The position numbers and the translations under genes were made by a program. Below the pieces are notes generated by a model, which did not search any database, was not told the DNA's origin, and saw only the letters and a list, made by a program, of their open reading frames with translations. From Pycnococcus provasolii (taxonomy: Eukaryota > Chlorophyta > Pseudoscourfieldiophyceae > Pseudoscourfieldiales > Pycnococcaceae): a DNA stretch of 64,000 nucleotides. Shown in pieces: positions 10,977-55,888 of the stretch (its first letter is position 1; every line of letters starts with the position of its first letter). The DNA is taken from contig OW568873.1 in assembly GCA_938743325.2 (NCBI GenBank), positions 434,001 through 498,000 on the forward strand, read 5' to 3'.

Positions 10977-11020
10977 AACCCTAACCCTAACCCTAACCCT
11001 AACCCTGAAACCCTAACAGG
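10977..11020 (-). promoter_or_regulatory. Telomere-like (TTAGGG)n array upstream of the GNAT gene
   Basis: Five perfect AACCCT units (10977-11006) plus one separated CCCTAA. On the coding strand of the GNAT gene they read as TTAGGG and sit about 60-100 bases before the ATG. They may be an interstitial telomeric repeat or a telo-box-like promoter element, as known in plants. Confidence 0.55.
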
Positions 11021-37243: not shown

Positions 37244-37892
37244 CACTTTGGAATAACCAGTTTGTTAAGTAGAAGTTGTGTTGTGTGGGAATACAGTCTT
37301 GAAGGCGTGATATCTGTGTGCTGATGATGATATATGATGGCGACGATCGATGAAGATAACCCTCGAGGGGAGGGCCTCAAAACGAGAAGAACGAGAACGA
37401 ACCACAAGAGCCACAAACCCGCCAACTGGTCAGCTCATAGAAGAACCGGCGAGGAACGAAACCCCGAATGCAAACCCCAATGCAAACCCCGAATGTAAAC
37501 CCCGAATGCAAACCCAAACCCCGAATGCAAACCCAAACCCCGAATGCAAACCCAAACCCCGACCTTCCCCCCCGACCAAAGGACCTTCCCCCCCGACTTT
37601 TCTTGCTTGTCCCTTGTCCTTTTTCAGTTTTTCACCCCCCCCTGAGGCCCTGCCTGCCTGATCTTTTCCCACCATGGGGCTGCACCAGTACCACAACAAC
37701 ACAACACAAGCTTGTCGAACGAACCCTTTTGGGGGAATGGGTGGGTGGGTGGGGCGAACGACGGGTCCACAGTAGGGCCATCCTACGGTGCCCTTTTTCT
37801 TTTTTTAGTTTTTTTCTTTACCTCGATTGATCGATCTCACCTTGTTTCCCATCATCACTTTTTCGTTTTTACTGTGCGTAGGGGCTGAAGTG
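37244..37892. other. Divergent intergenic region TPM-like / phosphoserine phosphatase
   Basis: 649 bases serving as upstream region for both genes. It contains a tandem repeat (next entry), C-rich stretches and a T-rich tract just before the phosphatase ATG. No gene seen. Confidence 0.45.
37461..37562 (+). repeat. Tandem repeat, unit CGAATGCAAACCC / CGAATGCAAACCCAAACCC
   Basis: About seven units of 13-19 bases with few mismatches, non-coding, about 330-430 bases upstream of the phosphatase ATG. C-rich on this strand. Confidence 0.7.
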
Positions 37893-38924: not shown

Positions 38925-38982
38925 TTCTTCTTCTTCTTTTAACGACAAATGTTCGTTCATTCTTCTCTTCTCAAAAAAATTG

Positions 38983-39951
38983 TTACAACTCTTCCGTCAT
39001 GAATGGACCAGTGACGCCGTCGGGAGGTGCCTCGCCGGAGCCGTTGTAGCCCAAGCACGCGATCCTGCCGTCGCGTCGTAGCGCCAGCGAGTGAACCCAA
39101 CCCGCAGCAATCGCGACGAAGTCTCCGTCGACGCCGTCGGGAGGCGCCTGGCCGAAATCGTTGTTACCCCAGCACGCGATACTGCAGTCGCGTCGGATCG
39201 CCAGCGAGTGACCGTCACCCGCGGCGATGGCGACGAAGTCGCCTTGTATGCCGTCTGGAGGCGCCTCGCCGTTGTAGTTGCGTCCCCAGCACACGACGCT
39301 GCCGTCGGGTTGAAGCGCCAGCGAGTGCTGCAAACCTGCAGCGATCGCGACGAAGGCGCCGTCGACGCCGTCAGGAGGCGCCTGGCCGTCGGCGTTGCGT
39401 CCCCAGCGCGCGACCCTGCCGTTGCGACGTAGCGCCAGCGAGTGAGCGCCCCCCGCGGCGATCGCGACGAAGTCACCGACGACCCCGTCGGGAGGCGCCT
39501 GGCCTTGGGTGTTGCGTCCCCAGCAAGCGATGCTGCCGTCGCCTCTGAGCGCCACCGAGTGAGCTTCACCTGCGGCGATCGCGACGAAGTCACCCTCGAC
39601 GCCGTCGGGAGGCGCTTGGCCTTCGGCGTTGCGTCCCCAGCACGTGATGCGGCCGTCGCGTCGAAGTGCCAGCGAGTGACGCAAGCCCGCAGCAACCATG
39701 ACGAAGTCGCCATTGACGCCGTCGGGAGGCGCCTGGCCGTGGCGGTTGCTTCCCCAGCACGCGACCCTGCCGTCGTGTCGAAGTGCCAGCGAGTGGTCGA
39801 GACCCCCAGCAATCACTCTGGACGAGAACCGCGCGGCATTAACTCGCTCACGTTCTTTGGCGAGGCGTCTCTCACGCTGCCACGGTATGAAGGCGAGGCG
39901 GAGCGCTTCGTACGCTAGCGCTCCGAGCTCCATAGGGGCGAGTGCTGACAT
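38983..39951 (-). CDS. RCC1-like repeat protein, copy A
   Basis: 322 residues from the ATG at 39951, the start shared with copies B and C; the frame is open further up in this copy only. After a charged leader (WQRERRLAKERERVNAAR) come seven repeats of 39 residues of the form FVAIAAG-x2-HSLALR-x-DG-x-IACWG-x-N-x2-GQAPPDGV-x-GD. The AAG-xx-HS-x-AL and CWG-x-N-xx-GQ hallmarks are those of RCC1/BNR blades, so a seven-bladed propeller is expected. Typical RCC1 blades are longer (50-60 residues); compact blades like these are common in algal and bacterial proteins of unknown role. Repeats 1-3 are distinct from 4-6 here, unlike copies B and C. Partner unknown. Head to head with the oxygenase gene (105 bases). 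Confidence 0.88.
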   Translation of the reverse strand: MSALAPMELGALAYEALRLAFIPWQRERRLAKERERVNAARFSSRVIAGGLDHSLALRHDGRVACWGSNRHGQAPPDGVNGDFVMVAAGLRHSLALRRDGRITCWGRNAEGQAPPDGVEGDFVAIAAGEAHSVALRGDGSIACWGRNTQGQAPPDGVVGDFVAIAAGGAHSLALRRNGRVARWGRNADGQAPPDGVDGAFVAIAAGLQHSLALQPDGSVVCWGRNYNGEAPPDGIQGDFVAIAAGDGHSLAIRRDCSIACWGNNDFGQAPPDGVDGDFVAIAAGWVHSLALRRDGRIACLGYNGSGEAPPDGVTGPFMTEEL

Positions 39952-40056
39952 GGCGACGAATGAGGGGACGTAAATTTCCAGACGGGTGAGGGGACGTCTT
40001 CGAAAAGGGGACCCCGACCCATCGCTTTTTATCCACTTTTTTATCTCGAAAACATA

Positions 40057-41577
40057 ATGTCGGCGGCGCCGCATACGCGCGTGCGCGACGTGCGCGTGCG
40101 CGTGCGCCTTTCACTCCGCCGCCTTTGTCGTCGTCGCTCGTCAGTCGTGCATTCTTCCGCAGAAGTCTCGTCATATCCACCCGTCGACGAAATTCATGTC
40201 GCACGACCCGCAGAAGACAACACAAACGCAACGCTGTTTCGTAAAAAGTACCTGCTTGGAAAGAAACCGTGTGTGCTACGTGGTGCATGTCCACAGGTTG
40301 CAGAGAACCCGCCACTCACACGCTCTGAGCTCACCTCTATGGCGCGCATTCTTCCTTCACGTGCGCTTACACGTGGGCCAACCGAACAGCCGAATGACTG
40401 GAGCGTCACGAAAGGGCGTCTCGCGGTGGAGGCGTTTGAAGACAGCGACGACGGCAAGTGCTCAATTCTCGTGGTCAACAACATAGACCGCTTGCACCTT
40501 GGCGTTTCAAAGATTGCCGACGACGTTTTGAGCATCATCGATGCGAGTGGCGCGCGCATGGTTCTCGACGACGTGCAGATATCCCTCGGCGCACGCGCCG
40601 GTGCGTCGGTGGGCCCTCACACCGACTCATACTCCGTATTCCTGCTACAAGTCGGCTCTCCCAAGCGCTGGGTGGTATCAAGCGGGGCGGTCGACTCGCT
40701 TGCGCCACACGTCGACGACGCGCACGTCGCTGACTGCCCCGTGCGCGTGCTTTCTGACAGTGCTATCGCAGAGTCGAAGGCTGAGCTCCTTGAGACTGTG
40801 GTCCAGCCGGGTGACGCGTTGTACGTCCCGCCTCACTGTGTTCACTACGGTTCGAGCGTTGACGACAGCGACAACTACACGTACTCGGTTGGTGTGCTCG
40901 CACCGTCGGCGCAGGACGTCCTGCTCAGTTTCGCGGCATTTGCCAGCGAGCAAGCAGCCTTCACGAATCACGCAAATGGCAGTACGAGGCGCTTTGACAT
41001 AGTTCACGAGGTAGCGGCGCTGGATGAGGAGAGGGAAATGTCAGCTGCGCATGGCACGATATCTCATGCACATGTACGTGCGACTCAGGCTTTCTTGCGC
41101 TCTCTCGCGGATGACGAAGATCTCGTGCGTGAATGGCTCGGCGAACACTTCACCGAGGCTGGCATGCATGTGATGCCAGCACGCATGCCTCTGGACAACG
41201 ACGAGCCTGCTGTGCGTGCACCTGGATCTCGAATTTTATTTGATGCCGCGCGAAGCTGCTTGTATGCGAATGGCCATAAGCATACATTGTCGGAGGATAA
41301 TGCTGCGTGGGCTCAGTCTCTAGCGGACGAAGGCATCGCACAGAGATGTGTCACGGACGGTGAGAAGGTTTTGGCTGCATCACTCCTCGAGGAAGGTGCC
41401 ATATGTGTGGCGGCGGACGCTGAAGAATTGGCCAGGGTTAGGGAGGAGGAGACGATGCAGCAGGGAGAGGATGATTGGCTAGGTTCTACTTCTTCTTCCT
41501 GGGACATGGCTGGCAACCCCGGCATGGATGATGGGTGGAGCGACGTGGGTTGGGGTGCAGACGACCCGAATGATTGA
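40057..41577 (+). CDS. JmjC/cupin ribosomal-oxygenase-like protein, copy A (full length)
   Basis: 506 residues. The N-terminus is Arg-rich and without acids (RVRVRLSLRRLCRRRSSVV), suggesting organelle import. Residues ~170-280 form a 2-oxoglutarate/Fe(II) cupin: H188-x-D190 in VGPHTDSYSVFLLQVGSPKRW and the distal His in GDALYVPPHCVHYG, followed by YTYSVG. This is the layout of RoxA/YcfD and MINA53/NO66 (cupin_4) enzymes that hydroxylate ribosomal proteins, so an organellar ribosomal-protein hydroxylase is the likely role. The C-terminal region resembles the winged-helix tail of that family (ILFDAARSCLYANGHKHTL...LADEGIA) and ends in an acidic, Trp/Gly/Asp-rich tail of 36 residues. Copies B and C have lost this tail. 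Confidence 0.85.
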   Translation: MSAAPHTRVRDVRVRVRLSLRRLCRRRSSVVHSSAEVSSYPPVDEIHVARPAEDNTNATLFRKKYLLGKKPCVLRGACPQVAENPPLTRSELTSMARILPSRALTRGPTEQPNDWSVTKGRLAVEAFEDSDDGKCSILVVNNIDRLHLGVSKIADDVLSIIDASGARMVLDDVQISLGARAGASVGPHTDSYSVFLLQVGSPKRWVVSSGAVDSLAPHVDDAHVADCPVRVLSDSAIAESKAELLETVVQPGDALYVPPHCVHYGSSVDDSDNYTYSVGVLAPSAQDVLLSFAAFASEQAAFTNHANGSTRRFDIVHEVAALDEEREMSAAHGTISHAHVRATQAFLRSLADDEDLVREWLGEHFTEAGMHVMPARMPLDNDEPAVRAPGSRILFDAARSCLYANGHKHTLSEDNAAWAQSLADEGIAQRCVTDGEKVLAASLLEEGAICVAADAEELARVREEETMQQGEDDWLGSTSSSWDMAGNPGMDDGWSDVGWGADDPND

Positions 41578-42346
41578 TTTGTTGTGTGGCTCGGCGTCGC
41601 GAAGTACCGCCGCAGCGTCACAACATCGTATTTTAATGTACTCTTGCCTTCTTTTTTCATTCCGCATTTTTTTTGTATCCCAATGCCGCCGGTGCCTATC
41701 GCAGCTTGTTGCTTCTCTTAAGAAGTCGTCGGACAGTGGCCTCCCGCACACTTCACCGCCGCTGGTAGTATGTTTTCCAAAAAAAAAGTGCAAAAAAAAT
41801 GTTTTATTCTTGTGTCAAGTTGACAACGTGCTGAAATGTGTATTTCATCGTTAGGTCGAGAGTCGGAGAGGAGAGGTTGTAGTTGGTATGAAAGTAGAAC
41901 TTACGAATACTAACCGTTATACGATCACGACTGAAAGGAGCTTGAATTTCTTCAAGGACGAGCTGAGCGTCGCCGTGACAGGCTGATTTGGTAGAGGAAT
42001 GTAAGAGAATGCTTCTTCGAACAGATTCATATTGTTTTTAGAAACGAATGACTTACGAGTCGAACCCTCTGCAAATGAGAATGGAGGATGTGAGAAAGCC
42101 GCTTTTGATGGAATTCTTGCGATGCTGTGATCGAAGGAATGTCGTACGGTCTCCACGGAACTGATTGGTAGAACCGCTGATGTTGTGATAGCGATTGGTG
42201 AATGTACCTGTACAGATACGTCGTCGTATGTCTTCCGCCAGACACACAAACACACACACCCCGCCGGCTTCCGCCGCCGCCGCAACCAACGCATTTATTT
42301 ACGACGCACAACAATCGCCACCACTGTCGTTGTTCCGTTCCTCCTC
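41578..42346 (+). promoter_or_regulatory. PRMT3 upstream region, duplicated copy A
   Basis: 769 bases matching 47542-48310 and 53506-54274, so in its original setting this is the 3' UTR of the oxygenase gene plus the promoter/5' UTR of PRMT3. The minus strand shows GTAAGT donors and pyrimidine-AG acceptors, but no clean spliced reading frame results. Confidence 0.5.
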
Positions 42347-42613
42347 ATGTCGGACAACAACAACAACAACAACTCGGACGACGACGACAACAACTCTTGG
42401 TCCAACTGGTCCGAGGACAACCTCTTCACCACGGTTTGTCCGTTGTGCTGTTGGAAACCGCCGGCCCGAGAGCGCGACGACCACGCCCGCGATGCTTGCA
42501 CCTTGATACGCCAACGTGGCATCGACGTGCGCGAAAGCGTCGCTGCCTCGCTAAACGTCATCGCGCACGTCCACGACACCTCGCTTCCTGGCATAAATTA
42601 TGCCTGTGTCTAG
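42347..42613 (+). pseudogene. PRMT3 5' fragment with foreign tail, copy A
   Basis: The first 34 codons equal those of the complete PRMT3 gene (54275), down to the CPLC half of its zinc finger. At 42448 the sequence departs and continues for 54 unrelated codons (CWKPPARERDD...) to a stop, an 88-codon frame. It lacks all the methyltransferase motifs. It keeps a full copy of the PRMT3 promoter, so it could be transcribed. Confidence 0.85.
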
Positions 42614-42925
42614 ACGATGCCCAGCACGGAAGAGAGAGAGCGAGCTGCAAGCGCGCGACGCGTCGCGCCGCCAGAGATGCCCATGCTGCGCTCTCCTAGC
42701 CACATATTACTTTACTTATCATCACCATTATTCCGTATTTACTCAAGACGTAGTCTGCTCAAGACGTAGTCTGATTGGTCGGGGCTGTCACTTTCCCAAC
42801 TCAAGACGATCTCTGGGTGGGAGAAGGCAAACCATCACCACCCAGGGGCAACAAAATAGATTCGGGGGGTCTGCGAGCTCCAATCCCACAATTAAACCCC
42901 CAATCCAAATCTCTCACTCGCTCAC

Positions 42926-43131
42926 GGACGAAACACATCGACGTGCGCCTTAAGAACTTGCGTGACCACGTTAAGCGCAAGGCTCTGGAGCTGCAGCACA
43001 TCGACACCAAGGAGCAGATCGCTGACATCTTCACGAAAGGATTGGGGCGCGATGCGTTCCAGTTTCTCAGCGGGCAGCTCATGGGAGAGCCAAGCCTGCG
43101 CTCCCTGCAATCGGTTGCTCGGGAGGAGTGA
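42926..43131 (+). mobile_element. Copia-type retrotransposon fragment (end of RNase H), copy 1
   Basis: Encodes the familiar Copia C-terminus: KHIDVRL, then LQHIDTKEQIADIFTKGLGR and FLSGQLMG. Only this end of the polyprotein is present. The downstream purine stretch and TGTCAC may be the start of an LTR. It is a broken fossil carried inside the array filler, old relative to the array duplication, because both units carry the same fragment. Confidence 0.8.
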
Positions 43132-43841
43132 GCGAGGGAGGACGGAGCTCGCAACCGAGCTTGGGGCATGTCACAGATCTGTGGGGACTTATGGGATCTC
43201 TGTCCCCCGAGGGAAAGAGGGGACTTAGAGGGAAAAGGGAATTCGCGTTTATTCTTGTTGTTTTGTTCTTGTAACGAAGCAGCGAGTCTTCACCTTAAGA
43301 GTTTCTTTCACAAAACGGATGCCTCAGTCCATGGCGCGGGCCTGCGCATGTTCCTCGAGGGTGATGCCGATGTTGACGACATGATGCAAGTCGTTGGGAG
43401 GTGGCGCTCACGCGCCATAGGCCTTAAGGCTGAGTTTGTGCTCGTGTTGCTGCCGGGTGTCGTCGACGGGCGACCCGTTCGGACAGAGTCGGCACCATTC
43501 CTTTTAAACGCCGAGCCGGGTGGTGGCATGGGGCATTACCGTCAAGCCGATAGACCGGTGGTGACGGCGACAGTGACGGCGACACAGCTCGTCTCCGCTC
43601 GCGGCGGCGGCGGCGGCGGCGGTAATGCTAAAACTACATATCCAAAGGGACCTCTGGGAGGTCCCACACGAAGTAAACGTCGGGAATGTGCGCGCCGCCA
43701 TGAGCCCATGAATGTTGGCACAACCGGGATCCCAAAAGTCCCACCCCTATTCTCGACCAGGGGAAGACACCAGCGACGAATCCCATCCCCGCAGGGCAAA
43801 ACCCACCGAACCTAGAAAGGACCTCACCAACACCAACTACG

Positions 43842-44042
43842 CCACACACACGCTCTGAGCTCACCTCATGGCGCGCATACTTCCTTCACGTGCGTACACG
43901 TGGGCATGTCAGAAAGCACGCGCACGGGGCAGTCCGCGACGTGTGCGTCGTGGCGCAAGCGAGTCGACCGCCCCGCTTGTTTTGACGACAGCGACAACTA
44001 CACGTACTCGGTTGGCTCGCACCGTCAGCGCAGGACGTCCTG
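43842..44042. other. Shuffled pieces of the oxygenase gene inside the filler, copy 1
   Basis: Three abutting patches match the oxygenase gene: ~43842-43905 direct (around CACACGCTCTGAGCTCACCT), ~43907-43979 in reverse complement (AGCGAGTCGACCGCCCCGC), ~43981-44042 direct again (CAACTACACGTACTCGGTTG). A fourth patch at ~44396-44425 matches the oxygenase 3' flank (41592-41622). Small internal gaps occur. Non-coding. Confidence 0.8.
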
Positions 44043-44368
44043 CGGATACGTCGATGGACGACGATCGCGCAGCTGCTCGAGCATGACGACCAACTACCAC
44101 AGTCGCGGCGACAGGTCTCGTGTGCATCGAGCTGTACAAGGTGATTGAGGGCGACGATGCAACACGTTCGAGCTTTGCCGCCTACTGTGTGTCGTCGGCT
44201 AGAAGCAGTCTGCTCTACAACTGTACACGACGAAGCAGACTATCCCCCGGCATTTTGACGTTGTCGTCGCCTGCGAGGATGACTAACGAGTGACTTGGAC
44301 GTGAACTTTAGTCTGTGTTTGGCCTGGAATGGCCTGCTCGTCTCGGAGCCTCGCGGACCTCCTACGCA

Positions 44369-44884
44369 ATGCGCGTCGAGGCGCTGGCCGTCGAGCGGCG
44401 TCGCGAAGTACCGCCGCAGCGTCACATGCTGGGTGTGGTCATGGCCATGCACGCCTTTCCCATCATGCCTGGCATGCGTGAGCTCGTCGTCAAGCTGCTG
44501 ACGAGCGGGAAGCAGGTGTTCCTCGTGAGCGGAGATTTCCGGCAGATGATCGCGCCTGTGGCGAACGAAATCGGTGTTCCCGTCAACAAGATATATGCAA
44601 ACAACATCATGTTCGACGAGGAGGGGAAATACGCAGGGTTCGACGACACGGAGCCGACGAGCCGAAGTGGTGGAAAGGCGGAGGCTGTGAAGAGGATCAA
44701 GGCGTCGAACGGATTCCAGACGGTGGTTATGGTGGGAGACGGCATGACGGACCTGGAGGCGCGCGTCGAAGGTGGCGCTGACGCCTTCATCTGCTTCACG
44801 GGCGTCGTGAGACGAGACGCGGTGGCGGAAGGGGCGGACTTGGCTGTTGGCGAGATGGCGCAAATCATGGATTTGCTGCTGTGA
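44369..44884 (+). pseudogene. 5'-truncated phosphoserine phosphatase, copy B
   Basis: Homology to the complete gene starts near 44431. Upstream, a foreign leader of ~24 codons with its own ATG happens to be in frame, giving 171 residues. The nucleophile motif FDVDST is missing, and motif II reads LVSGDF instead of LVSGGF. The rest is intact, including VGDGMTDLEA. It cannot be an active phosphatase as read. Confidence 0.9.
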
Positions 44885-44948
44885 TTCTTCTTCTTCTTCT
44901 TCTTTTAACGACAAATGTTCGTTCATTCTTCTCTTCTCAAAAAAATTG

Positions 44949-45917
44949 TTACAACTCTTCCGTCATGAATGGACCAGTGACGCCGTCGGGAGGTGCCTCG
45001 CCGGAGCCGTTGTAGCCCAAGCACGCGATCCTGCCGTCGCGTCGTAGCGCCAGCGAGTGAACCCAACCCGCAGCAATCGCGACGAAGTCGCCGTCGACGC
45101 CGTCGGGAGGCGCCTGGCCGAAATCGTTGTTACCCCAGCACGCGATACTGCAGTCGCGTCGGATCGCCAGCGAGTGACCGTCACCCGCGGCGATGGCGAC
45201 GAAGTCGCCTTGTATGCCGTCTGGAGGCGCCTCGCCGTTGTAGTTGCGTCCCCAGCACACGACGCTGCCGTCGGGTTGAAGCGCCAGCGAGTGCTGCAAA
45301 CCTGCAGCGATCGCGACGAAGGCGCCGTCGACGCCGTCAGGAGGCGCCTGGCCGTCGGCGTTGCGTCCCCAGCACGCGACCCTGCCGTTGCGACGTAGCG
45401 CCAGCGAGTGAGCGCCCCCCGCGGCGATCGCGACGAAGTCACCGACGACCCCGTCGGGAGGCGCCTGGCCGTCGCGGTTGTGTCCCCAGCACGCGATACT
45501 GCAGTCGCGTCGGATCGCCAGCGAGTGACCGTCACCCGCGGCGATCGCGACGAAGTCGCCTTGTATGCCGTCTGGAGGCGCCTCGCCGTTGTCGTTGCGT
45601 CCCCAGCACACGACGCTGCCGTCGGGTTGAAGTGCCAGCGAGTGCTGCAAACCTGCAGCGATCGCGACGAAGGCGCCGTCGACGCCGTCAGGAGGCGCCT
45701 GGCCGTCGGCGTTGCGTCCCCAGCACGCGACCCTGCCGTCGTGTCGAAGTGCCAGCGAGTGGTCGAGACCCCCAGCAATCACTCTGGACGAGAACCGCGC
45801 GGCGTTAACTCGCTCACGTTCTTTGGCGAGGCGTCTCTCACGCTGCCACGGTATGAAGGCGAGGCGGAGCGCTTCGTACGCTAGCGCTCCGAGCTCCATA
45901 GGGGCGAGTGCTGACAT
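44949..45917 (-). CDS. RCC1-like repeat protein, copy B
   Basis: 322 residues, same start, length and seven 39-residue repeats as copy A. Repeats 4-7 are nearly unchanged. Repeats 1-3 have turned into near-copies of repeats 4-6 (GRNADGQAPPDGVDGA, LQHSLALQPDGSVVCWGRN, DGHSLAIRRDCSIACWG), which points to gene conversion or unequal exchange between blades. The frame is fully open, so the protein may still be made. Convergent with the truncated phosphatase, divergent from oxygenase B. Confidence 0.88.
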   Translation of the reverse strand: MSALAPMELGALAYEALRLAFIPWQRERRLAKERERVNAARFSSRVIAGGLDHSLALRHDGRVACWGRNADGQAPPDGVDGAFVAIAAGLQHSLALQPDGSVVCWGRNDNGEAPPDGIQGDFVAIAAGDGHSLAIRRDCSIACWGHNRDGQAPPDGVVGDFVAIAAGGAHSLALRRNGRVACWGRNADGQAPPDGVDGAFVAIAAGLQHSLALQPDGSVVCWGRNYNGEAPPDGIQGDFVAIAAGDGHSLAIRRDCSIACWGNNDFGQAPPDGVDGDFVAIAAGWVHSLALRRDGRIACLGYNGSGEAPPDGVTGPFMTEEL

Positions 45918-46028
45918 GGCGACGAATGAGGGGACGTAAATTTCCAGACGGGTGAGGGGACGCCTGAGAGGAGAGGGGACCCCGACCGGTCGCTTTTTAG
46001 TCTATCCACTTTTTCTCTCACAAACATA

Positions 46029-47438
46029 ATGTCGGCGGCGCCGCATACACGTGTGCGCGGCGTGCGCGTGCGCGTGCGCCTTTCACTCCGCCGCCTTTGT
46101 CGTCGTCGCTCGTCAGTCGTGCATTCTTCCGCAGAAGTCTCGTCATATCCACCCGTCGACGAAATTCATGTCGCACGACCCGCAGAAGACAACACAAACG
46201 CAACGCTGTTTCGTAAAAAGTACCTGCTTGGAAAGAAACCGTGTGTGCGTGCATGTCCACAGGTTGCAGAGAACCCGCCACTCACACGCTCTGAGCTCAC
46301 CTCTATGGCGCGCATACTTCCTTCACGTGCGCTTACACGTGGGCCAACCGAACAGCCGAATGACTGGAGCGTCACGAAAGGGCGTCATGCGGTGGAGACG
46401 TTTGAAGACAGCGACGACGGCAAGTGCTCAATTCTCGTGGTCAACAACATAGACCGCTTGCACCTTGGCGTTTCAAAGATTGCCGACGACGTTTTGAGCA
46501 TCATCGATGCGAGTGGCGCACGCATGGTTCTCGACGACGTGCAGATATCCCTCGGCGCACGCGCCGGTGCGTCGGTGGGCCCTCACACCGACTCATACTC
46601 CGTGTTCCTGCTACAAGTCGGCTCTCCCAAGCGCTGGGTGGTATCAAGCGGGGCGGTCGACTCGCTTGCGCCACACGTCGACGACGCACACGTCGCTGAC
46701 TGCCCCGTGCGCGTGCTTTCTGACAGTGCTATCGCAGAGTCGAAGGCTGAGCTCCTTGAGACTGTGGTCCAGCCGGGTGACGCGTTGTACGTCCCGCCTC
46801 ACTGTGTTCACTACGGTTCGAGCGTTGACGACAGCGACAACTACACGTACTCGGTTGGTGTGCTCGCACCGTCGGCGCAGGACGTCCTGCTCAGTTTCGC
46901 GGCATTTGCCAGCGAGCAAGCAGCCTTCACGAATCACGCAAATGGCAGTACGAGGCGCTTTGACATAGTTCACGAGGTAGCGGCGCTGGATGAGGAGAGG
47001 GAAATGTCAGCTGCGCATGGCACGATATCTCATGCACATGTACGTGCGACTCAGGCTTTCTTGCGCTCTCTCGCGGATGACGAAGATCTCGTGCGTGAAT
47101 GGCTCGGCGAACACTTCACCGAGGCTGGCATGCATGTGATGCCAGCACGCATGCCTCTGGACAACGACGAGCCTGCTGTGCGTGCACCTGGATCTCGAAT
47201 TTTATTTGATGCCGCGCGAAGCTGCTTGTATGCGAATGGCCATAAGCATACATTGTCGGAGGATAATGCTGCGTGGGCTCAGTCTCTAGCGGACGAAGGC
47301 ATCGCACGGAGATGTGTCACGGACAGTGAGAAGGTTTTGGCTGCATCACTCCTCGAGGAAGGTGCCATATGTGTGGCGGCGGACGCTGAAGAATTGGCCA
47401 GGGTTAGGGAGGAGGAGACGATGCAGCAGGGAGGATGA
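46029..47438 (+). CDS. Ribosomal-oxygenase-like protein, copy B (C-terminally shortened)
   Basis: 469 residues. The iron-binding HTD and distal His are intact. Versus copy A: six bases fewer near 46245 (CVLRGACP becomes CVRACP) and two bases fewer near 47431, which shifts the frame and ends the protein at MQQGG, removing the 36-residue acidic tail. The tail coding sequence is still present downstream in another frame. Activity of the cupin core is possible. Confidence 0.85.
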   Translation: MSAAPHTRVRGVRVRVRLSLRRLCRRRSSVVHSSAEVSSYPPVDEIHVARPAEDNTNATLFRKKYLLGKKPCVRACPQVAENPPLTRSELTSMARILPSRALTRGPTEQPNDWSVTKGRHAVETFEDSDDGKCSILVVNNIDRLHLGVSKIADDVLSIIDASGARMVLDDVQISLGARAGASVGPHTDSYSVFLLQVGSPKRWVVSSGAVDSLAPHVDDAHVADCPVRVLSDSAIAESKAELLETVVQPGDALYVPPHCVHYGSSVDDSDNYTYSVGVLAPSAQDVLLSFAAFASEQAAFTNHANGSTRRFDIVHEVAALDEEREMSAAHGTISHAHVRATQAFLRSLADDEDLVREWLGEHFTEAGMHVMPARMPLDNDEPAVRAPGSRILFDAARSCLYANGHKHTLSEDNAAWAQSLADEGIARRCVTDSEKVLAASLLEEGAICVAADAEELARVREEETMQQGG

Positions 47439-48310
47439 TTGGCTAGGTTCTACTTCTTCTTCTTGGGACATGGCTGGCAACCCCGGCATGGATGATGGGT
47501 GGAGCGACGTGGGTTGGGGTGCAGACGACCCGAATGATTGATTTGTTGTGTGGCTCGGCGTCGCGAAGTACCGCCGCAGCGTCACAACATCGTATTTTAA
47601 TGTACTCTTGCCTTCTTTTTTCATTCCGCATTTTTTTTGTATCCCAATGCCGCCGGTGCCTATCGCAGCTTGTTGCTTCTCTTAAGAAGTCGTCGGACAG
47701 TGGCCTCCCGCACACTTCACCGCCGCTGGTAGTATGTTTTCCAAAAAAAAAGTGCAAAAAAAATGTTTTATTCTTGTGTCAAGTTGACAACGTGCTGAAA
47801 TGTGTATTTCATCGTTAGGTCGAGAGTCGGAGAGGAGAGGTTGTAGTTGGTATGAAAGTAGAACTTACGAATACTAACCGTTATACGATCACGACTGAAA
47901 GGAGCTTGAATTTCTTCAAGGACGAGCTGAGCGTCGCCGTGACAGGCTGATTTGGTAGAGGAATGTAAGAGAATGCTTCTTCGAACAGATTCATATTGTT
48001 TTTAGAAACGAATGACTTACGAGTCGAACCCTCTGCAAATGAGAATGGAGGATGTGAGAAAGCCGCTTTTGATGGAATTCTTGCGATGCTGTGATCGAAG
48101 GAATGTCGTACGGTCTCCACGGAACTGATTGGTAGAACCGCTGATGTTGTGATAGCGATTGGTGAATGTACCTGTACAGATACGTCGTCGTATGTCTTCC
48201 GCCAGACACACAAACACACACACCCCGCCGGCTTCCGCCGCCGCCGCAACCAACGCATTTATTTACGACGCACAACAATCGCCACCACTGTCGTTGTTCC
48301 GTTCCTCCTC
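47439..48310 (+). promoter_or_regulatory. PRMT3 upstream region, duplicated copy B
   Basis: Contains the frame-shifted remnant of the oxygenase tail, then the same 769 bases as 41578-42346. Confidence 0.5.
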
Positions 48311-48577
48311 ATGTCGGACAACAACAACAACAACAACTCGGACGACGACGACAACAACTCTTGGTCCAACTGGTCCGAGGACAACCTCTTCACCACGGTT
48401 TGTCCGTTGTGCTGTTGGAAACCGCCGGCCCGAGAGCGCGACGACCACGCCCGCGATGCTTGCACCTTGATACGCCAACGTGGCATCGACGTGCGCGAAA
48501 GCGTCGCTGCCTCGCTAAACGTCATCGCGCACGTCCACGACACCTCGCTTCCTGGCATAAATTATGCCTGTGTCTAG
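48311..48577 (+). pseudogene. PRMT3 5' fragment with foreign tail, copy B
   Basis: Identical in structure to 42347-42613: 34 PRMT3 codons, then the same 54-codon foreign tail. Confidence 0.85.
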
Positions 48578-48889
48578 ACGATGCCCAGCACGGAAGAGAG
48601 AGAGCGAGCTGCAAGCGCGCGACGCGTCGCGCCGCCAGAGATGCCCATGCTGCGCTCTCCTAGCCACATATTACTTTACTTATCATCACCATTATTCCGT
48701 ATTTACTCAAGACGTAGTCTGCTCAAGACGTAGTCTGATTGGTCGGGGCTGTCACTTTCCCAACTCAAGACGATCTCTGGGTGGGAGAAGGCAAACCATC
48801 ACCACCCAGGGGCAACAAAATAGATTCGGGGGGTCTGCGAGCTCCAATCCCACAATTAAACCCCCAATCCAAATCTCTCACTCGCTCAC

Positions 48890-49095
48890 GGACGAAACAC
48901 ATCGACGTGCGCCTTAAGAACTTGCGTGACCACGTTAAGCGCAAGGCTCTGGAGCTGCAGCACATCGACACCAAGGAGCAGATCGCTGACATCTTCACGA
49001 AAGGATTGGGGCGCGATGCGTTCCAGTTTCTCAGCGGGCAGCTCATGGGAGAGCCAAGCCTGCGCTCCCTGCAATCGGTTGCTCGGGAGGAGTGA
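48890..49095 (+). mobile_element. Copia-type retrotransposon fragment (end of RNase H), copy 2
   Basis: Duplicate of 42926-43131, carried along with the tandem unit; not an independent insertion. Confidence 0.8.
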
Positions 49096-49805
49096 GCGAG
49101 GGAGGACGGAGCTCGCAACCGAGCTTGGGGCATGTCACAGATCTGTGGGGACTTATGGGATCTCTGTCCCCCGAGGGAAAGAGGGGACTTAGAGGGAAAA
49201 GGGAATTCGCGTTTATTCTTGTTGTTTTGTTCTTGTAACGAAGCAGCGAGTCTTCACCTTAAGAGTTTCTTTCACAAAACGGATGCCTCAGTCCATGGCG
49301 CGGGCCTGCGCATGTTCCTCGAGGGTGATGCCGATGTTGACGACATGATGCAAGTCGTTGGGAGGTGGCGCTCACGCGCCATAGGCCTTAAGGCTGAGTT
49401 TGTGCTCGTGTTGCTGCCGGGTGTCGTCGACGGGCGACCCGTTCGGACAGAGTCGGCACCATTCCTTTTAAACGCCGAGCCGGGTGGTGGCATGGGGCAT
49501 TACCGTCAAGCCGATAGACCGGTGGTGACGGCGACAGTGACGGCGACACAGCTCGTCTCCGCTCGCGGCGGCGGCGGCGGCGGCGGTAATGCTAAAACTA
49601 CATATCCAAAGGGACCTCTGGGAGGTCCCACACGAAGTAAACGTCGGGAATGTGCGCGCCGCCATGAGCCCATGAATGTTGGCACAACCGGGATCCCAAA
49701 AGTCCCACCCCTATTCTCGACCAGGGGAAGACACCAGCGACGAATCCCATCCCCGCAGGGCAAAACCCACCGAACCTAGAAAGGACCTCACCAACACCAA
49801 CTACG

Positions 49806-50006
49806 CCACACACACGCTCTGAGCTCACCTCATGGCGCGCATACTTCCTTCACGTGCGTACACGTGGGCATGTCAGAAAGCACGCGCACGGGGCAGTCCG
49901 CGACGTGTGCGTCGTGGCGCAAGCGAGTCGACCGCCCCGCTTGTTTTGACGACAGCGACAACTACACGTACTCGGTTGGCTCGCACCGTCAGCGCAGGAC
50001 GTCCTG
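49806..50006. other. Shuffled pieces of the oxygenase gene inside the filler, copy 2
   Basis: Same three patches as 43842-44042, duplicated with the unit. Confidence 0.8.
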
Positions 50007-50332
50007 CGGATACGTCGATGGACGACGATCGCGCAGCTGCTCGAGCATGACGACCAACTACCACAGTCGCGGCGACAGGTCTCGTGTGCATCGAGCTGTA
50101 CAAGGTGATTGAGGGCGACGATGCAACACGTTCGAGCTTTGCCGCCTACTGTGTGTCGTCGGCTAGAAGCAGTCTGCTCTACAACTGTACACGACGAAGC
50201 AGACTATCCCCCGGCATTTTGACGTTGTCGTCGCCTGCGAGGATGACTAACGAGTGACTTGGACGTGAACTTTAGTCTGTGTTTGGCCTGGAATGGCCTG
50301 CTCGTCTCGGAGCCTCGCGGACCTCCTACGCA

Positions 50333-50848
50333 ATGCGCGTCGAGGCGCTGGCCGTCGAGCGGCGTCGCGAAGTACCGCCGCAGCGTCACATGCTGGGTGT
50401 GGTCATGGCCATGCACGCCTTTCCCATCATGCCTGGCATGCGTGAGCTCGTCGTCAAGCTGCTGACGAGCGGGAAGCAGGTGTTCCTCGTGAGCGGAGAT
50501 TTCCGGCAGATGATCGCGCCTGTGGCGAACGAAATCGGTGTTCCCGTCAACAAGATATATGCAAACAACATCATGTTCGACGAGGAGGGGAAATACGCAG
50601 GGTTCGACGACACGGAGCCGACGAGCCGAAGTGGTGGAAAGGCGGAGGCTGTGAAGAGGATCAAGGCGTCGAACGGATTCCAGACGGTGGTTATGGTGGG
50701 AGACGGCATGACGGACCTGGAGGCGCGCGTCGAAGGTGGCGCTGACGCCTTCATCTGCTTCACGGGCGTCGTGAGACGAGACGCGGTGGCGGAAGGGGCG
50801 GACTTGGCTGTTGGCGAGATGGCGCAAATCATGGATTTGCTGCTGTGA
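50333..50848 (+). pseudogene. 5'-truncated phosphoserine phosphatase, copy C
   Basis: Same as copy B: foreign in-frame leader, no FDVDST nucleophile motif, SGD in motif II. Confidence 0.9.
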
Positions 50849-50912
50849 TTCTTCTTCTTCTTCTTCTTTTAACGACAAATGTTCGTTCATTCTTCTCTTC
50901 TCAAAAAAATTG

Positions 50913-51881
50913 TTACAACTCTTCCGTCATGAATGGACCAGTGACGCCGTCGGGAGGTGCCTCGCCGGAGCCGTTGTAGCCCAAGCACGCGATCCTGCCG
51001 TCGCGTCGTAGCGCCAACGAGTGAACCCAACCCGCAGCAATCGCGACGAAGTCGCCGTCGACGCCGTCGGGAGGCGCCTGGCCGAAATCGTTGTTACCCC
51101 AGCACGCGATACTGCAGTCGCGTCGGATCGCCAGCGAGTGACCGTCACCCGCGGCGATGGCGACGAAGTCGCCTTGTATGCCGTCTGGAGGCGCCTCGCC
51201 GTTGTAGTTGCGTCCCCAGCACACGACGCTGCCGTCGGGTTGAAGCGCCAGCGAGTGCTGCAAACCTGCAGCGATCGCGACGAAGGCGCCGTCGACGCCG
51301 TCAGGAGGCGCCTGGCCGTCGGCGTTGCGTCCCCAGCACGCGACCCTGCCGTTGCGACGTAGCGCCAGCGAGTGAGCGCCCCCCGCGGCGATCGCGACGA
51401 AGTCACCGACGACCCCGTCGGGAGGCGCCTGGCCGTCGCGGTTGTGTCCCCAGCACGCGATACTGCAGTCGCGTCGGATCGCCAGCGAGTGACCGTCACC
51501 CGCGGCGATCGCGACGAAGTCGCCTTGTATGCCGTCTGGAGGCGCCTCGCCGTTGTCGTTGCGTCCCCAGCACACGACGCTGCCGTCGGGTTGAAGTGCC
51601 AGCGAGTGCTGCAAACCTGCAGCGATCGCGACGAAGGCGCCGTCGACGCCGTCAGGAGGCGCCTGGCCGTCGGCGTTGCGTCCCCAGCACGCGACCCTGC
51701 CGTCGTGTCGAAGTGCCAGCGAGTGGTCGAGACCCCCAGCAATCACTCTGGACGAGAACCGCGCGGCGTTAACTCGCTCACGTTCTTTGGCGAGGCGTCT
51801 CTCACGCTGCCACGGTATGAAGGCGAGGCGGAGCGCTTCGTACGCTAGCGCTCCGAGCTCCATAGGGGCGAGTGCTGACAT
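50913..51881 (-). CDS. RCC1-like repeat protein, copy C
   Basis: 322 residues, protein identical to copy B by eye. One silent base change (CTG to TTG) distinguishes the genes. Blades 1-3 are the converted type. Confidence 0.88.
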   Translation of the reverse strand: MSALAPMELGALAYEALRLAFIPWQRERRLAKERERVNAARFSSRVIAGGLDHSLALRHDGRVACWGRNADGQAPPDGVDGAFVAIAAGLQHSLALQPDGSVVCWGRNDNGEAPPDGIQGDFVAIAAGDGHSLAIRRDCSIACWGHNRDGQAPPDGVVGDFVAIAAGGAHSLALRRNGRVACWGRNADGQAPPDGVDGAFVAIAAGLQHSLALQPDGSVVCWGRNYNGEAPPDGIQGDFVAIAAGDGHSLAIRRDCSIACWGNNDFGQAPPDGVDGDFVAIAAGWVHSLALRRDGRIACLGYNGSGEAPPDGVTGPFMTEEL

Positions 51882-51992
51882 GGCGACGAATGAGGGGACG
51901 TAAATTTCCAGACGGGTGAGGGGACGCCTGAGAGGAGAGGGGACCCCGACCGGTCGCTTTTTAGTCTATCCACTTTTTCTCTCACAAACATA

Positions 51993-53402
51993 ATGTCGGC
52001 GGCGCCGCATACACGTGTGCGCGGCGTGCGCGTGCGCGTGCGCCTTTCACTCCGCCGCCTTTGTCGTCGTCGCTCGTCAGTCGTGCATTCTTCCGCAGAA
52101 GTCTCGTCATATCCACCCGTCGACGAAATTCATGTCGCACGACCCGCAGAAGACAACACAAACGCAACGCTGTTTCGTAAAAAGTACCTGCTTGGAAAGA
52201 AACCGTGTGTGCGTGCATGTCCACAGGTTGCAGAGAACCCGCCACTCACACGCTCTGAGCTCACCTCTATGGCGCGCATACTTCCTTCACGTGCGCTTAC
52301 ACGTGGGCCAACCGAACAGCCGAATGACTGGAGCGTCACGAAAGGGCGTCATGCGGTGGAGACGTTTGAAGACAGCGACGACGGCAAGTGCTCAATTCTC
52401 GTGGTCAACAACATAGACCGCTTGCACCTTGGCGTTTCAAAGATTGCCGACGACGTTTTGAGCATCATCGATGCGAGTGGCGCACGCATGGTTCTCGACG
52501 ACGTGCAGATATCCCTCGGCGCACGCGCCGGTGCGTCGGTGGGCCCTCACACCGACTCATACTCCGTGTTCCTGCTACAAGTCGGCTCTCCCAAGCGCTG
52601 GGTGGTATCAAGCGGGGCGGTCGACTCGCTTGCGCCACACGTCGACGACGCACACGTCGCTGACTGCCCCGTGCGCGTGCTTTCTGACAGTGCTATCGCA
52701 GAGTCGAAGGCTGAGCTCCTTGAGACTGTGGTCCAGCCGGGTGACGCGTTGTACGTCCCGCCTCACTGTGTTCACTACGGTTCGAGCGTTGACGACAGCG
52801 ACAACTACACGTACTCGGTTGGTGTGCTCGCACCGTCGGCGCAGGACGTCCTGCTCAGTTTCGCGGCATTTGCCAGCGAGCAAGCAGCCTTCACGAATCA
52901 CGCAAATGGCAGTACGAGGCGCTTTGACATAGTTCACGAGGTAGCGGCGCTGGATGAGGAGAGGGAAATGTCAGCTGCGCATGGCACGATATCTCATGCA
53001 CATGTACGTGCGACTCAGGCTTTCTTGCGCTCTCTCGCGGATGACGAAGATCTCGTGCGTGAATGGCTCGGCGAACACTTCACCGAGGCTGGCATGCATG
53101 TGATGCCAGCACGCATGCCTCTGGACAACGACGAGCCTGCTGTGCGTGCACCTGGATCTCGAATTTTATTTGATGCCGCGCGAAGCTGCTTGTATGCGAA
53201 TGGCCATAAGCATACATTGTCGGAGGATAATGCTGCGTGGGCTCAGTCTCTAGCGGACGAAGGCATCGCACGGAGATGTGTCACGGACAGTGAGAAGGTT
53301 TTGGCTGCATCACTCCTCGAGGAAGGTGCCATATGTGTGGCGGCGGACGCTGAAGAATTGGCCAGGGTTAGGGAGGAGGAGACGATGCAGCAGGGAGGAT
53401 GA
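51993..53402 (+). CDS. Ribosomal-oxygenase-like protein, copy C (C-terminally shortened)
   Basis: 469 residues, same as copy B including both deletions relative to copy A, so those changes precede the last duplication. Head to head with RCC1-like C (111 bases). This copy directly precedes the complete PRMT3 gene, which probably reflects the ancestral order. Confidence 0.85.
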   Translation: MSAAPHTRVRGVRVRVRLSLRRLCRRRSSVVHSSAEVSSYPPVDEIHVARPAEDNTNATLFRKKYLLGKKPCVRACPQVAENPPLTRSELTSMARILPSRALTRGPTEQPNDWSVTKGRHAVETFEDSDDGKCSILVVNNIDRLHLGVSKIADDVLSIIDASGARMVLDDVQISLGARAGASVGPHTDSYSVFLLQVGSPKRWVVSSGAVDSLAPHVDDAHVADCPVRVLSDSAIAESKAELLETVVQPGDALYVPPHCVHYGSSVDDSDNYTYSVGVLAPSAQDVLLSFAAFASEQAAFTNHANGSTRRFDIVHEVAALDEEREMSAAHGTISHAHVRATQAFLRSLADDEDLVREWLGEHFTEAGMHVMPARMPLDNDEPAVRAPGSRILFDAARSCLYANGHKHTLSEDNAAWAQSLADEGIARRCVTDSEKVLAASLLEEGAICVAADAEELARVREEETMQQGG

Positions 53403-54274
53403 TTGGCTAGGTTCTACTTCTTCTTCTTGGGACATGGCTGGCAACCCCGGCATGGATGATGGGTGGAGCGACGTGGGTTGGGGTGCAGACGACCCGAATG
53501 ATTGATTTGTTGTGTGGCTCGGCGTCGCGAAGTACCGCCGCAGCGTCACAACATCGTATTTTAATGTACTCTTGCCTTCTTTTTTCATTCCGCATTTTTT
53601 TTGTATCCCAATGCCGCCGGTGCCTATCGCAGCTTGTTGCTTCTCTTAAGAAGTCGTCGGACAGTGGCCTCCCGCACACTTCACCGCCGCTGGTAGTATG
53701 TTTTCCAAAAAAAAAGTGCAAAAAAAATGTTTTATTCTTGTGTCAAGTTGACAACGTGCTGAAATGTGTATTTCATCGTTAGGTCGAGAGTCGGAGAGGA
53801 GAGGTTGTAGTTGGTATGAAAGTAGAACTTACGAATACTAACCGTTATACGATCACGACTGAAAGGAGCTTGAATTTCTTCAAGGACGAGCTGAGCGTCG
53901 CCGTGACAGGCTGATTTGGTAGAGGAATGTAAGAGAATGCTTCTTCGAACAGATTCATATTGTTTTTAGAAACGAATGACTTACGAGTCGAACCCTCTGC
54001 AAATGAGAATGGAGGATGTGAGAAAGCCGCTTTTGATGGAATTCTTGCGATGCTGTGATCGAAGGAATGTCGTACGGTCTCCACGGAACTGATTGGTAGA
54101 ACCGCTGATGTTGTGATAGCGATTGGTGAATGTACCTGTACAGATACGTCGTCGTATGTCTTCCGCCAGACACACAAACACACACACCCCGCCGGCTTCC
54201 GCCGCCGCCGCAACCAACGCATTTATTTACGACGCACAACAATCGCCACCACTGTCGTTGTTCCGTTCCTCCTC
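53403..54274 (+). promoter_or_regulatory. Upstream region of the complete PRMT3 gene
   Basis: Shortened-tail remnant of oxygenase C, T-rich stretch with TTTTATTCTTG, then AC-rich sequence before the PRMT3 ATG. The frame of PRMT3 is open for 54 codons upstream of the ATG without a better start. Confidence 0.5.
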
Positions 54275-55888
54275 ATGTCGGACAACAACAACAACAACAA
54301 CTCGGACGACGACGACAACAACTCTTGGTCCAACTGGTCCGAGGACAACCTCTTCACCACGGTTTGTCCGTTGTGCCCAGCCACGTCAGAGAGCCCCTCT
54401 CTTATGCTCCGCGACCACCTCCCCTCCATCCACAACCTCAACCTCCTCAACCTGCGCTCCAAGCACTCGTGGGACTACCACTGCTGCGTGCGTGCCGTGA
54501 ACTACTTAAGGGCCGGTTACGACCCATCTGCACTCGAAGCCACAATCTCATCTGTCCCTCGCGACTCGCCGCAGTACCTCACGCCTGTCCTGGAGAACGA
54601 CGCTCTGTTATCCTGCGATGACTTCCTGGACGACGACGACGACGACGACGACAACCCTGACGACACAACTTTGCAAACTTTGCAACAACTACAAAGAGAA
54701 AATGCACTTCTTCATCAGCGCCTCTCATTAATCCAGTCTTCGCTACTCCAAGAAGACGACGAAAAAGAAAAAATCTCCTCCTCATCTCCTCCCGCTTCTT
54801 CCGAATCGTCCATTATTGACCCAGGCTACTTCCGTTCCTACGCCCGCTACGACATTCACCGCCAGATGCTCTTGGACGACACGCGCACACTTGCCTACAG
54901 ATCCGCTCTCTTAACCCTCTCAAATAACAAGCGCGTTCTCGATGTGGGCACAGGCACAGGCATCTTAACGCTCTTTGCCGTGCAAGGTGGCGCAAGTTCT
55001 GCCGTTGCCATTGAAGCGTCCGAACCTCTAGCCCCCCTAGCCCAGTCTCTGCTCGCCGCCAACGACCCAAACAAAATAGCCACCCTGTTCAAAGGACGCT
55101 CAGAATCCTACCAAACCAACGAGCCGTTCGACATCATCGTCAGCGAGTGGATGGGATACGCTTTATTATTCGAGAACATGCTGCCCTCCGTGCTTCACGT
55201 GCGCGACCGCCTCTTGAAACCAGGCGGCGCGATGGTCCCGAGGCGCGCCACCATGTCGCTGGGATTCGCATCCGCGCGCACGTCGTACCACCTCCTCGGA
55301 CACCGCCAGGCGACGCCAGCAAAGGACATGGCGTGGGGCGACGTCTACGGCATGGACTTTTCGGAGGTGGGACGTCGATGGCACGCCGAGGAACTCAAAA
55401 CAGCGACGGTCATGCACATGTCCAGCGCAACGCCGACGTTTGAGCGCAATCCTGACATCCTCACAACGGACGCCGTGTTCGTGGACCTTGACTTGCAAAC
55501 GTGCTCGTCTGACGATCTTGAGTTCACGAGGCCATTCCGCGTCGACGTCGTCAGCACAGACGCCGCACAGTCGATGCCAACAAACACACCTCACCCCAAC
55601 TCTCTGCACTCCTGCGCGCTCTGGTTTGCCACCGAGCTGGCGGACGGCATCTGGCTGGACACGTCGCCGCATGGTGCTGACACGCACTGGGGGCAGGTGG
55701 TCCTCCAGCTGCCCGAGCCCATCGTCGACGCCAGGACGATCGAGGGCACCATCAGCTTCGCGCGCGAAAAGCCTTCAAACGACAACGAGTCGGCAAGAGG
55801 GTATGACATCGCACTAACGTATCGCATCGTGTACGTCGACGGCACGTCGTCGTCTGACGAGGTGACGCGTGTGTACGAGCTTCACTAG
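54275..55888 (+). CDS. PRMT3: Protein arginine methyltransferase 3
   Basis: 537 residues. The N-terminal C2H2 zinc finger (CPLC...LRDHLPSIH) is the PRMT3 hallmark and in other eukaryotes recruits ribosomal protein uS5 (RPS2). An acidic/Gln-rich linker follows. The catalytic core shows ARYDIHRQMLLDD, SAM motif I VLDVGTGTGILTLFA, the double-E loop SEWMGYALLFENML and the THW loop DTHWGQ. It would place asymmetric dimethylarginine on ribosomal and other proteins in the cytosol. The start is the ATG at 54275, right before a Asn/Asp run. Both partial copies upstream diverge at codon 34. The stop lies only 26 bases from the stop of the convergent PHR-like gene. Confidence 0.94.
   Translation: MSDNNNNNNSDDDDNNSWSNWSEDNLFTTVCPLCPATSESPSLMLRDHLPSIHNLNLLNLRSKHSWDYHCCVRAVNYLRAGYDPSALEATISSVPRDSPQYLTPVLENDALLSCDDFLDDDDDDDDNPDDTTLQTLQQLQRENALLHQRLSLIQSSLLQEDDEKEKISSSSPPASSESSIIDPGYFRSYARYDIHRQMLLDDTRTLAYRSALLTLSNNKRVLDVGTGTGILTLFAVQGGASSAVAIEASEPLAPLAQSLLAANDPNKIATLFKGRSESYQTNEPFDIIVSEWMGYALLFENMLPSVLHVRDRLLKPGGAMVPRRATMSLGFASARTSYHLLGHRQATPAKDMAWGDVYGMDFSEVGRRWHAEELKTATVMHMSSATPTFERNPDILTTDAVFVDLDLQTCSSDDLEFTRPFRVDVVSTDAAQSMPTNTPHPNSLHSCALWFATELADGIWLDTSPHGADTHWGQVVLQLPEPIVDARTIEGTISFAREKPSNDNESARGYDIALTYRIVYVDGTSSSDEVTRVYELH

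What the first reader, a model, noticed from the sequence alone, without database searches (positions are those of the whole stretch)
42449..54376. Near-perfect 5,964-bp tandem unit amplifying an RCC1-like/oxygenase gene pair
Seen: two head-to-tail units of identical length with one base difference noticed, plus an older, more diverged third copy of the gene pair at 38983-41577. Only the outermost phosphatase and PRMT3 are whole; the inner copies are cut at the same points. This suggests an initial rearrangement followed by a very recent unequal exchange. It could reflect dosage selection on the RCC1-like/oxygenase pair, ongoing copy-number variation, or an assembly artefact.
Basis: partly seen in the sequence, partly recalled or inferred. 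Interest (0 to 1): 0.78.

Follow-up and report, generated by a model that had tools for sequence, protein, structure and literature searches.

The report
Repeatedly rearranged tandem duplication in Pycnococcus
A stretch of chromosome 13 of a tiny marine green alga carries two almost identical copies and one older partial copy of a block with two genes; it is a real but ordinary kind of duplication, built in several steps, and some database proteins that differ from it carry one of its joints.

Summary
In detail: units 42449-48412 and 48413-54376 are both 5,964 bp and differ at one base (45053 G / 51017 A). An earlier partial copy runs 38479-42448, so the array is Y_A-X-Y_B-X-Y_C. Y (3.97 kb) carries the 3' end of a phosphoserine phosphatase (PSP), an RCC1-like gene, a YcfD-like JmjC oxygenase and the 5' end of PRMT3. 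X (1.99 kb) is a mosaic of retrotransposon debris, a decayed gene-family member, a dispersed repeat and scrambled oxygenase scraps. X ends in a joint (J1) between the oxygenase 3' end and the inside of PSP. Three database proteins (source 'ena', none identical to the window) read across J1, so the founding head-to-tail duplication is hardly an assembly artefact. The third copy's divergence is mostly one 246-bp RCC1 conversion tract; its last 982 bp differ at one base. Best explanation: an old J1 duplication, a second junction through X, a crossover near 41467-41500, then a very recent unequal exchange; the middle steps are inferred. Dosage selection is not shown: A and B/C oxygenases differ by a frameshift. 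Copy number still needs reads. The genome is very probably Pycnococcus provasolii CCAP190/2. Ordinary kind, legible history.

The parts
37827..38924 (+). whole phosphoserine phosphatase-like gene (HAD), left-hand donor; tandem homology starts inside it at 38465/38479
   Evidence: PF12710 1.2e-15, PF00702 1.4e-15; relatives named phosphoserine phosphatase
38479..42448 (+). Y_A, older partial copy: PSP 3' end, RCC1-like, JmjC oxygenase, intergenic, PRMT3 first 34 codons
38983..40074 (-). RCC1-like gene, copy A, seven RCC1_2 repeats
   Evidence: PF13540 6.3e-66, 7 stretches
39505..39750 (.). tract where A and B/C differ at 48 of 246 bases; B/C here is 95.9% identical to the block three repeats (351 bp) away and 80.5% to its own counterpart: intragenic conversion
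40057..41577 (+). JmjC_2/ROXA-wH oxygenase, copy A, 506 aa
   Evidence: PF08007 2.8e-17, PF20514 7e-07; solved relatives
41467..42448 (.). 3' part of Y_A that differs from Y_B at one base in 982; contains the longest identical A/B run (41500-42448, 949 bp), inferred crossover site
42449..44438 (.). X (first copy): mosaic segment; whole X found only twice in this 32.3-Mb genome
42506..42620 (+). X58-172: 97% to C24:76644-76758, which encodes part of an unnamed protein family
42629..42925 (-). X181-477: truncated piece of a 443-bp LTR of a copia-type element at C5
   Evidence: 97%; LTR pair; PF07727 RVT_2 8.8e-24 in the C5 element
42925..43310 (+). X477-862: end of a copia-type pol frame and downstream sequence; X632-862 100% to C19:428417-428647
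   Evidence: tblastn to the C5 copia frame 2e-12 and to the L032 frame 5e-37. The L032 frame itself has no retroelement Pfam match
43315..43551 (+). X867-1103: another piece of the same unnamed protein family (62-66% aa identity to C6, C7, C23 members)
43601..43813 (.). X1153-1365: dispersed repeat found at many places in the genome
43840..44043 (.). X1392-1595: three oxygenase scraps, orientation +, -, +, nearly abutting
44396..44438 (+). J1 (first copy): 31 bp identical to oxygenase 3' end 41592-41622, then TGCT, then PSP GGGTGTGG (38465-38472)
44439..48412 (+). Y_B
44369..44884 (+). chimeric truncated PSP reading frame starting in X, 171 aa
   Evidence: database protein P0123 matches it at 99% over its whole length
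44949..45917 (-). RCC1-like gene, copy B
46029..47438 (+). JmjC oxygenase, copy B, 469 aa; after the wH domain the frame differs from A by a 2-bp indel, so that A's last 36 residues are replaced by one
48413..50402 (.). X, second copy, identical to the first
50380..50402 (+). J1 core, second copy
50403..54376 (+). Y_C, one base from Y_B
54113..55888 (+). whole PRMT3-like gene, right-hand donor
   Evidence: PF22528 5.9e-16; the PRMT3 zinc-finger model PF21137 only at 0.075, below cut-off; several relatives named PRMT3 or rmt3

Best explanation
A multi-step tandem duplication. (1) The joint is shown, its place in the order is inferred: a head-to-tail duplication joined the oxygenase 3' end (41622) to the inside of PSP (38465) with a 4-nt TGCT insertion (J1), giving a unit of about 3.16 kb. 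(2) Inferred: a second junction joined the 5' part of PRMT3 to J1-side DNA through X, a patchwork of retrotransposon debris, gene fragments and oxygenase scraps, most simply by error-prone joining or template switching. (3) Inferred: a homologous crossover near 41467-41500 removed the left J1 and left Y_A as a hybrid, 5' part old, 3' part young. (4) Very recently, unequal exchange between Y copies, most simply inside the 949-bp identical run 41500-42448, added one 5,964-bp unit. RCC1 repeats were meanwhile homogenised by a conversion shifted by 351 bp. As far as the evidence goes, the gene pair is a passenger.
For: Two units, 1 difference in 5,964. J1 core twice in the window, 0 in 100 shuffles. 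P0123 (171 aa, 99% over the whole chimeric frame), P0126 and P0127 read from oxygenase 3' sequence or X's end into PSP; the residues of P0127 and P0126 at the joint fit the same TGCT insertion (codons inferred, DNA not seen). X mosaic. Divergence step: 18 of 2,580 substitutions in the 5' part (two clusters left out after seeing them) against 1 of 982 in the 3' part, Fisher p 0.036, Poisson 0.008. Longest A/B identical run 949 bp from 41500. Conversion: B tract 95.9% to the block 351 bp away, 80.5% to its counterpart.
Against: Steps 2 and 3 are deduced from one genome; no intermediate haplotype was seen. The PRMT3-X joint has no independent support: of the proteins I read two close relatives, P0002 and P0004, and both run on as ordinary PRMT3 past the joint's place, and P0124 and P0125 are whole PSPs without J1. 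The divergence step is modest and could be chance or plain gene conversion. A pseudogene at C38 shares X's joint between a dispersed repeat and the oxygenase at about codon 85, so some scraps are older than the present locus or have moved. 352 bp of X (1596-1947) have no assigned source. J1 outside the window was read at protein level only; what lies further left in those contigs is unknown.
Confidence: 0.7

Rival explanations
1. The second 5,964-bp unit is an assembly error, for example two haplotypes laid in tandem or a repeat counted twice.
For: B and C differ at one base only; curation of the matching assembly removed 6 haplotypic duplications and it is not fully phased.
Against: 444x HiFi, QV 58.2; one SNV separates the copies; J1 occurs in database proteins that differ from the window. 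None of this fixes the count of near-identical units.
Confidence: 0.15
2. Selection for more RCC1-like/oxygenase product kept the copies.
For: RCC1-like genes are a large family here with a tandem cluster on C7; the HxD...H residues (motif recalled) are present in A and B; non-synonymous changes are 5 of 11 with one indel-linked codon left out, against an assumed neutral 73%, p 0.049; with all 12, p 0.076.
Against: Tiny counts and an assumed neutral ratio; frame difference at the oxygenase end; the RCC1-like family is amplified elsewhere without an oxygenase; no expression data.
Confidence: 0.1
3. X is one mobile element that captured gene pieces (Helitron- or Pack-TIR-like) and its insertion started the duplication, as proposed for EPSPS in kochia.
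For: X holds fragments that match several loci and shares a chimeric oxygenase joint with C38.
Against: No second whole X outside this array; X begins inside PRMT3 and ends in J1; no inverted repeats of 100 bp or more in 36000-58000. Shorter terminal motifs were not tested.
Confidence: 0.1

Closest known systems
Naturally evolved CUP1 tandem arrays of yeast (PMC4232551, passages read)
   Same: single-copy gene duplicated head to tail at joints with little or no homology, several joint types in natural strains, unequal exchange in existing arrays
   Different: here the joint carries a 2-kb mosaic insert and the amplified genes have no known dosage role
EPSPS tandem duplication of kochia (PMC6808082, passages read)
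   Same: repeat units with an inserted segment at their borders; growth by unequal crossing over proposed
   Different: there a 16-kb mobile element with predicted genes and herbicide selection; here 2 kb of broken fragments and no selection shown
Complex duplications with templated insertions (microhomology- or theta-mediated joining; seen in a search listing only)
   Same: short pieces from several loci, including inverted local pieces, at a duplication joint
   Different: identity of the pieces to their matches ranges from 73 to 100%, so a single event cannot be claimed
YcfD/RoxA uL16 arginine hydroxylases
   Same: JmjC_2 domain, ROXA-like winged helix, HxD...H residues
   Different: gene of an alga's chromosome; substrate untested

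Membership tests
Tandem duplication by unequal homologous exchange (unit B to C) | head-to-tail copies of equal length with high identity | tested here: met
   5,964 bp each, 1 difference
Tandem duplication by unequal homologous exchange (unit B to C) | extended homology available at the exchange site | tested here: met
   Y_A and Y_B share 949 identical bases from 41500
Tandem duplication by unequal homologous exchange (unit B to C) | reciprocal or copy-number variants in the population | not testable with these tools
   no reads or other strains held; only single proteins with J1
Non-homologous founding duplication (CUP1 type) | joint without homology between the two ends | tested here: met
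   J1: oxygenase 3' end, TGCT, PSP GGGTGTGG
Templated-insertion joint | insert pieces match other loci and local DNA, abutting | tested here: met
   X pieces; 352 bp remain unassigned
Templated-insertion joint | pieces formed in one event, near-identical to templates | tested here: inconclusive
   identity ranges from 73 to 100%; C38 shares one inner joint
Transposable element as unit X | repeated whole element with defined ends | tested here: not met
   whole X only in this array
YcfD/RoxA-type uL16 hydroxylase | JmjC_2 domain | tested here: met
   PF08007 2.8e-17; 4csw 7.6e-16
YcfD/RoxA-type uL16 hydroxylase | ROXA-like winged helix | tested here: met
   PF20514 7e-07, 29.7 bits against a cut-off of 22
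YcfD/RoxA-type uL16 hydroxylase | hydroxylates Arg of uL16 | not testable with these tools
   needs an assay

The most novel reading that the evidence does not exclude
The PSP-oxygenase interval is a structural-variation hotspot that segregates in wild Pycnococcus: one J1 duplication is shared by several lineages, each has altered it differently (small insertions at the joint, a missing 15-residue PSP stretch, or X with the PRMT3 piece), and copy number keeps changing by unequal exchange, which would make it a natural test case for the birth of tandem arrays in a picoalga.
Probability: 0.45. Interest if true: 0.5.

Novelty: new member of a known kind. Interest (0 to 1): 0.35.

Why it matters
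It gives a readable record of how a tandem array can start (a joint without homology), be re-broken with transposon debris, and then grow by homologous exchange, in an early-branching green alga; and the founding joint can be traced in database sequences, so array birth and growth could be followed in natural populations. It also corrects the picture of the third copy: much of its apparent age is one conversion tract.

Tried and rejected
Simple duplication with X as ordinary flank: rejected, X is absent from both flanks in this window apart from a 29-bp GGC-run match. RNA family: none at E up to 1 in 38000-45000. X as tyrosine recombinase: my first impression from the reading frame 43132-43815, not borne out by Pfam (no family for that frame or for the relatives L052 and L053; the third relative, L054, has only PF16101 at E 0.013, 15.8 bits against a cut-off of 38.6, taken as chance); it is a piece of an unnamed local family. 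J1 as a DNA pattern: 0 hits in viral contigs and in genome contigs, neither of which is a collection of eukaryotes. Oxygenase and PRMT3 searches for named close relatives gave none from a named alga of this genus. Literature: six searches; only one search was aimed at this locus's genes and organism (825 papers, 10 listed), and none of the listed titles concerned it; one search found nothing.

Control: one other stretch of the window (57900-59750) matched elsewhere only through its telomere-like repeat (86 of 87 matches, the other being itself). Y without most of the RCC1 gene (45790-48412) matched elsewhere through the RCC1 start, the C38 fragment, X's own scraps, a piece of about 70 bp at C20 and C40 and one of 42 bp at C5. 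So X's many patches stand out against these two stretches; no wider control was run.

The output was cut; the rows cited are from the part shown.

Full report
Observation. The two units 42449-48412 and 48413-54376 are both 5,964 bp and differ at one base, 45053 G against 51017 A; near-identity at that offset runs from 41467 to 54376 with two mismatches. The difference is silent in the RCC1-like protein. Before them lies a partial copy, 38479-42448, so the array reads Y_A-X-Y_B-X-Y_C, Y being 3.97 kb and X 1,990 bp. Whole PSP is left of the array, whole PRMT3 right of it; the inner pieces are cut at the same bases.

Genes. PSP is a HAD phosphatase; the RCC1-like gene has seven RCC1_2 repeats; the oxygenase has JmjC_2 and a ROXA-like winged helix. 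Its four sequence matches among solved structures (E up to 0.01) are one cupin-4 protein (4csw; I recall it as R. marinus YcfD) and three 50S L16 arginine hydroxylases, so it works most likely as a YcfD-type ribosomal oxygenase and not clearly as a NO66/MINA53 type; no assay. In a search of this genome the oxygenase matched only here and at a fragment on C38 (7 matches: 5 in the array, 2 pieces at C38), whereas 40 matches to the RCC1-like part were listed elsewhere (a lower bound, 39 of 183 candidates scored), among them nine full copies in C7:286864-306924. The pair therefore seems to exist only in this array.

Copies A and B. Of 76 substitutions (one search gives the same count: 99 differing columns less 22 gap columns and the one that separates only B from C), 48 lie in 39505-39750 and 9 in 39961-40060. 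The B/C sequence of the first tract is 95.9% identical to the block 351 bp (three repeats) away and 80.5% to its own counterpart: an intragenic conversion. With these two clusters left out, a choice made after seeing them, the counted parts of 38479-41465 have 18 of 2,580 and 41467-42448 has 1 of 982 (Fisher p 0.036; Poisson 0.008). The oxygenases differ at 6 synonymous and 6 non-synonymous codons (one of the latter beside a 6-bp indel) and by a 2-bp indel that replaces A's last 36 residues by one in B/C; which state is ancestral is not known. Database protein P0001 (98%), read and aligned, sides with B at some sites and with A at others, so both copies have changed; it lacks the region of the 2-bp indel.

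X. Whole X was found only in this array; 51 matches were listed, 2 of them whole. Pieces: X58-172 (97% to C24), X181-477 (part of a 443-bp LTR at C5), X477-862 (end of a copia-type pol frame and beyond, 100% to C19 over X632-862), X867-1103 (unnamed protein family), X1153-1365 (dispersed repeat), X1392-1595 (three oxygenase scraps, +, -, +), X1948-1978 (31 bp identical to 41592-41622). The C24 piece encodes part of the same unnamed family as X867-1103, in order (E 3e-4; one search also lists 42377-42628 weakly, 1.4e-5, partly through low-complexity residues), so X seems to hold a decayed family member split by retrotransposon debris. X1596-1947 is unassigned. C38:159735-160135 holds another oxygenase fragment whose left joint is the one in X.

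J1. X ends with the oxygenase 3' end up to 41622, TGCT, then PSP from 38465 with 6 bp missing. A protein search with the chimeric frame 44369-44884 found 203 proteins, 120 listed; I read the first 8 and aligned 7. P0123 matches over the whole chimeric frame at 99%, including the part that lies in X, and has SGGF like Y_A where B has SGDF. P0126 reads oxygenase 3' sequence (41570-41620), then PSP from 38462, with a change of frame; P0127 reads 41574-41621, then PSP from 38466. Both carry short extra residues in the oxygenase part. In the single-copy order PSP lies upstream of the oxygenase, so this joint needs a head-to-tail duplication or an equivalent rearrangement. The clusters stand for 4, 25 and 1 sequences (clusters at 90% identity; not every member need carry the joint). 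P0126, P0127 and P0129 lack 15 PSP residues, by deletion or by gene model. P0124 and P0125 are whole PSPs without J1. The sources are given only as 'ena'; that they are independent of the window's assembly rests on their differing sequences and short contigs. P0123 shows the last part of X only; whether the rest of X lies beside it is unknown.

Genome. G000 has 46 contigs and 32.33 Mb; C13 has 867,455 bases and C16 757,545. The published P. provasolii CCAP190/2 assembly has 44 chromosomes plus two organelles, 32.25 Mb, scaffold N50 757,545, chromosome 13 of 0.87 Mb, 444x HiFi, QV 58.2 (first of three parts of the text and the genome report section read).

Mechanism. J1 is the founding joint: no homology, a 4-nt insertion, shared with database proteins. 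A second joint links PRMT3 to J1-side DNA through X. The step in divergence at 41467-41500 fits Y_A being a hybrid made by a crossover between an old and a young Y, which also removed the left J1. The B/C unit then arose by unequal exchange; a crossover left of 41499 would have left A-type bases in Y_B, so the last 949 bp of Y are its likely place. Steps two and three are inferred, and the PRMT3-X joint was seen nowhere else.

Verdict. Real, ordinary in kind, with an unusually legible history. Selection on the gene pair is not shown; copy number needs reads.

Noticed in passing
G000:C7:286864-306924: Nine full RCC1-like copies in tandem, about 2.1-2.8 kb apart, in the same genome.
   Followed up: no
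window 10977-11017, 33897-33957, 58555-58602: Short internal arrays of a GTTAGG/AACCCT hexamer; the one at 58555-58602 matches arrays at several contig ends, so telomere-like repeats lie inside the chromosome.
   Followed up: partly
window 4546-4697 and 5502-5653: 152-bp exact direct repeat.
   Followed up: no
G000:C38:159735-160135 (L041): Oxygenase pseudogene fragment with an internal deletion, sharing its left joint with X.
   Followed up: partly
G000:C5:824000-833999 (L028): A copia-type element with 443-bp LTRs, nested in another LTR element with integrase domains.
   Followed up: no
X1153-1298 and loci L038, L039, L040, L047: Dispersed repeat of about 140 bp with a GGC run at one end and a short self-complementary stretch.
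   Followed up: partly
P0001: Database oxygenase (cluster of 61) that leaves the window's sequence after about residue 365 and ends in the 3' region: another variant of the same 3' end.
   Followed up: no
L043, L045: An acetyltransferase reading frame (Pfam for L045) preceded by a repeat related to X1215-1365.
   Followed up: no
window 47799-47869: About 70 bp of Y's intergenic part, 87-88% identical to places on C20 and C40.
   Followed up: no
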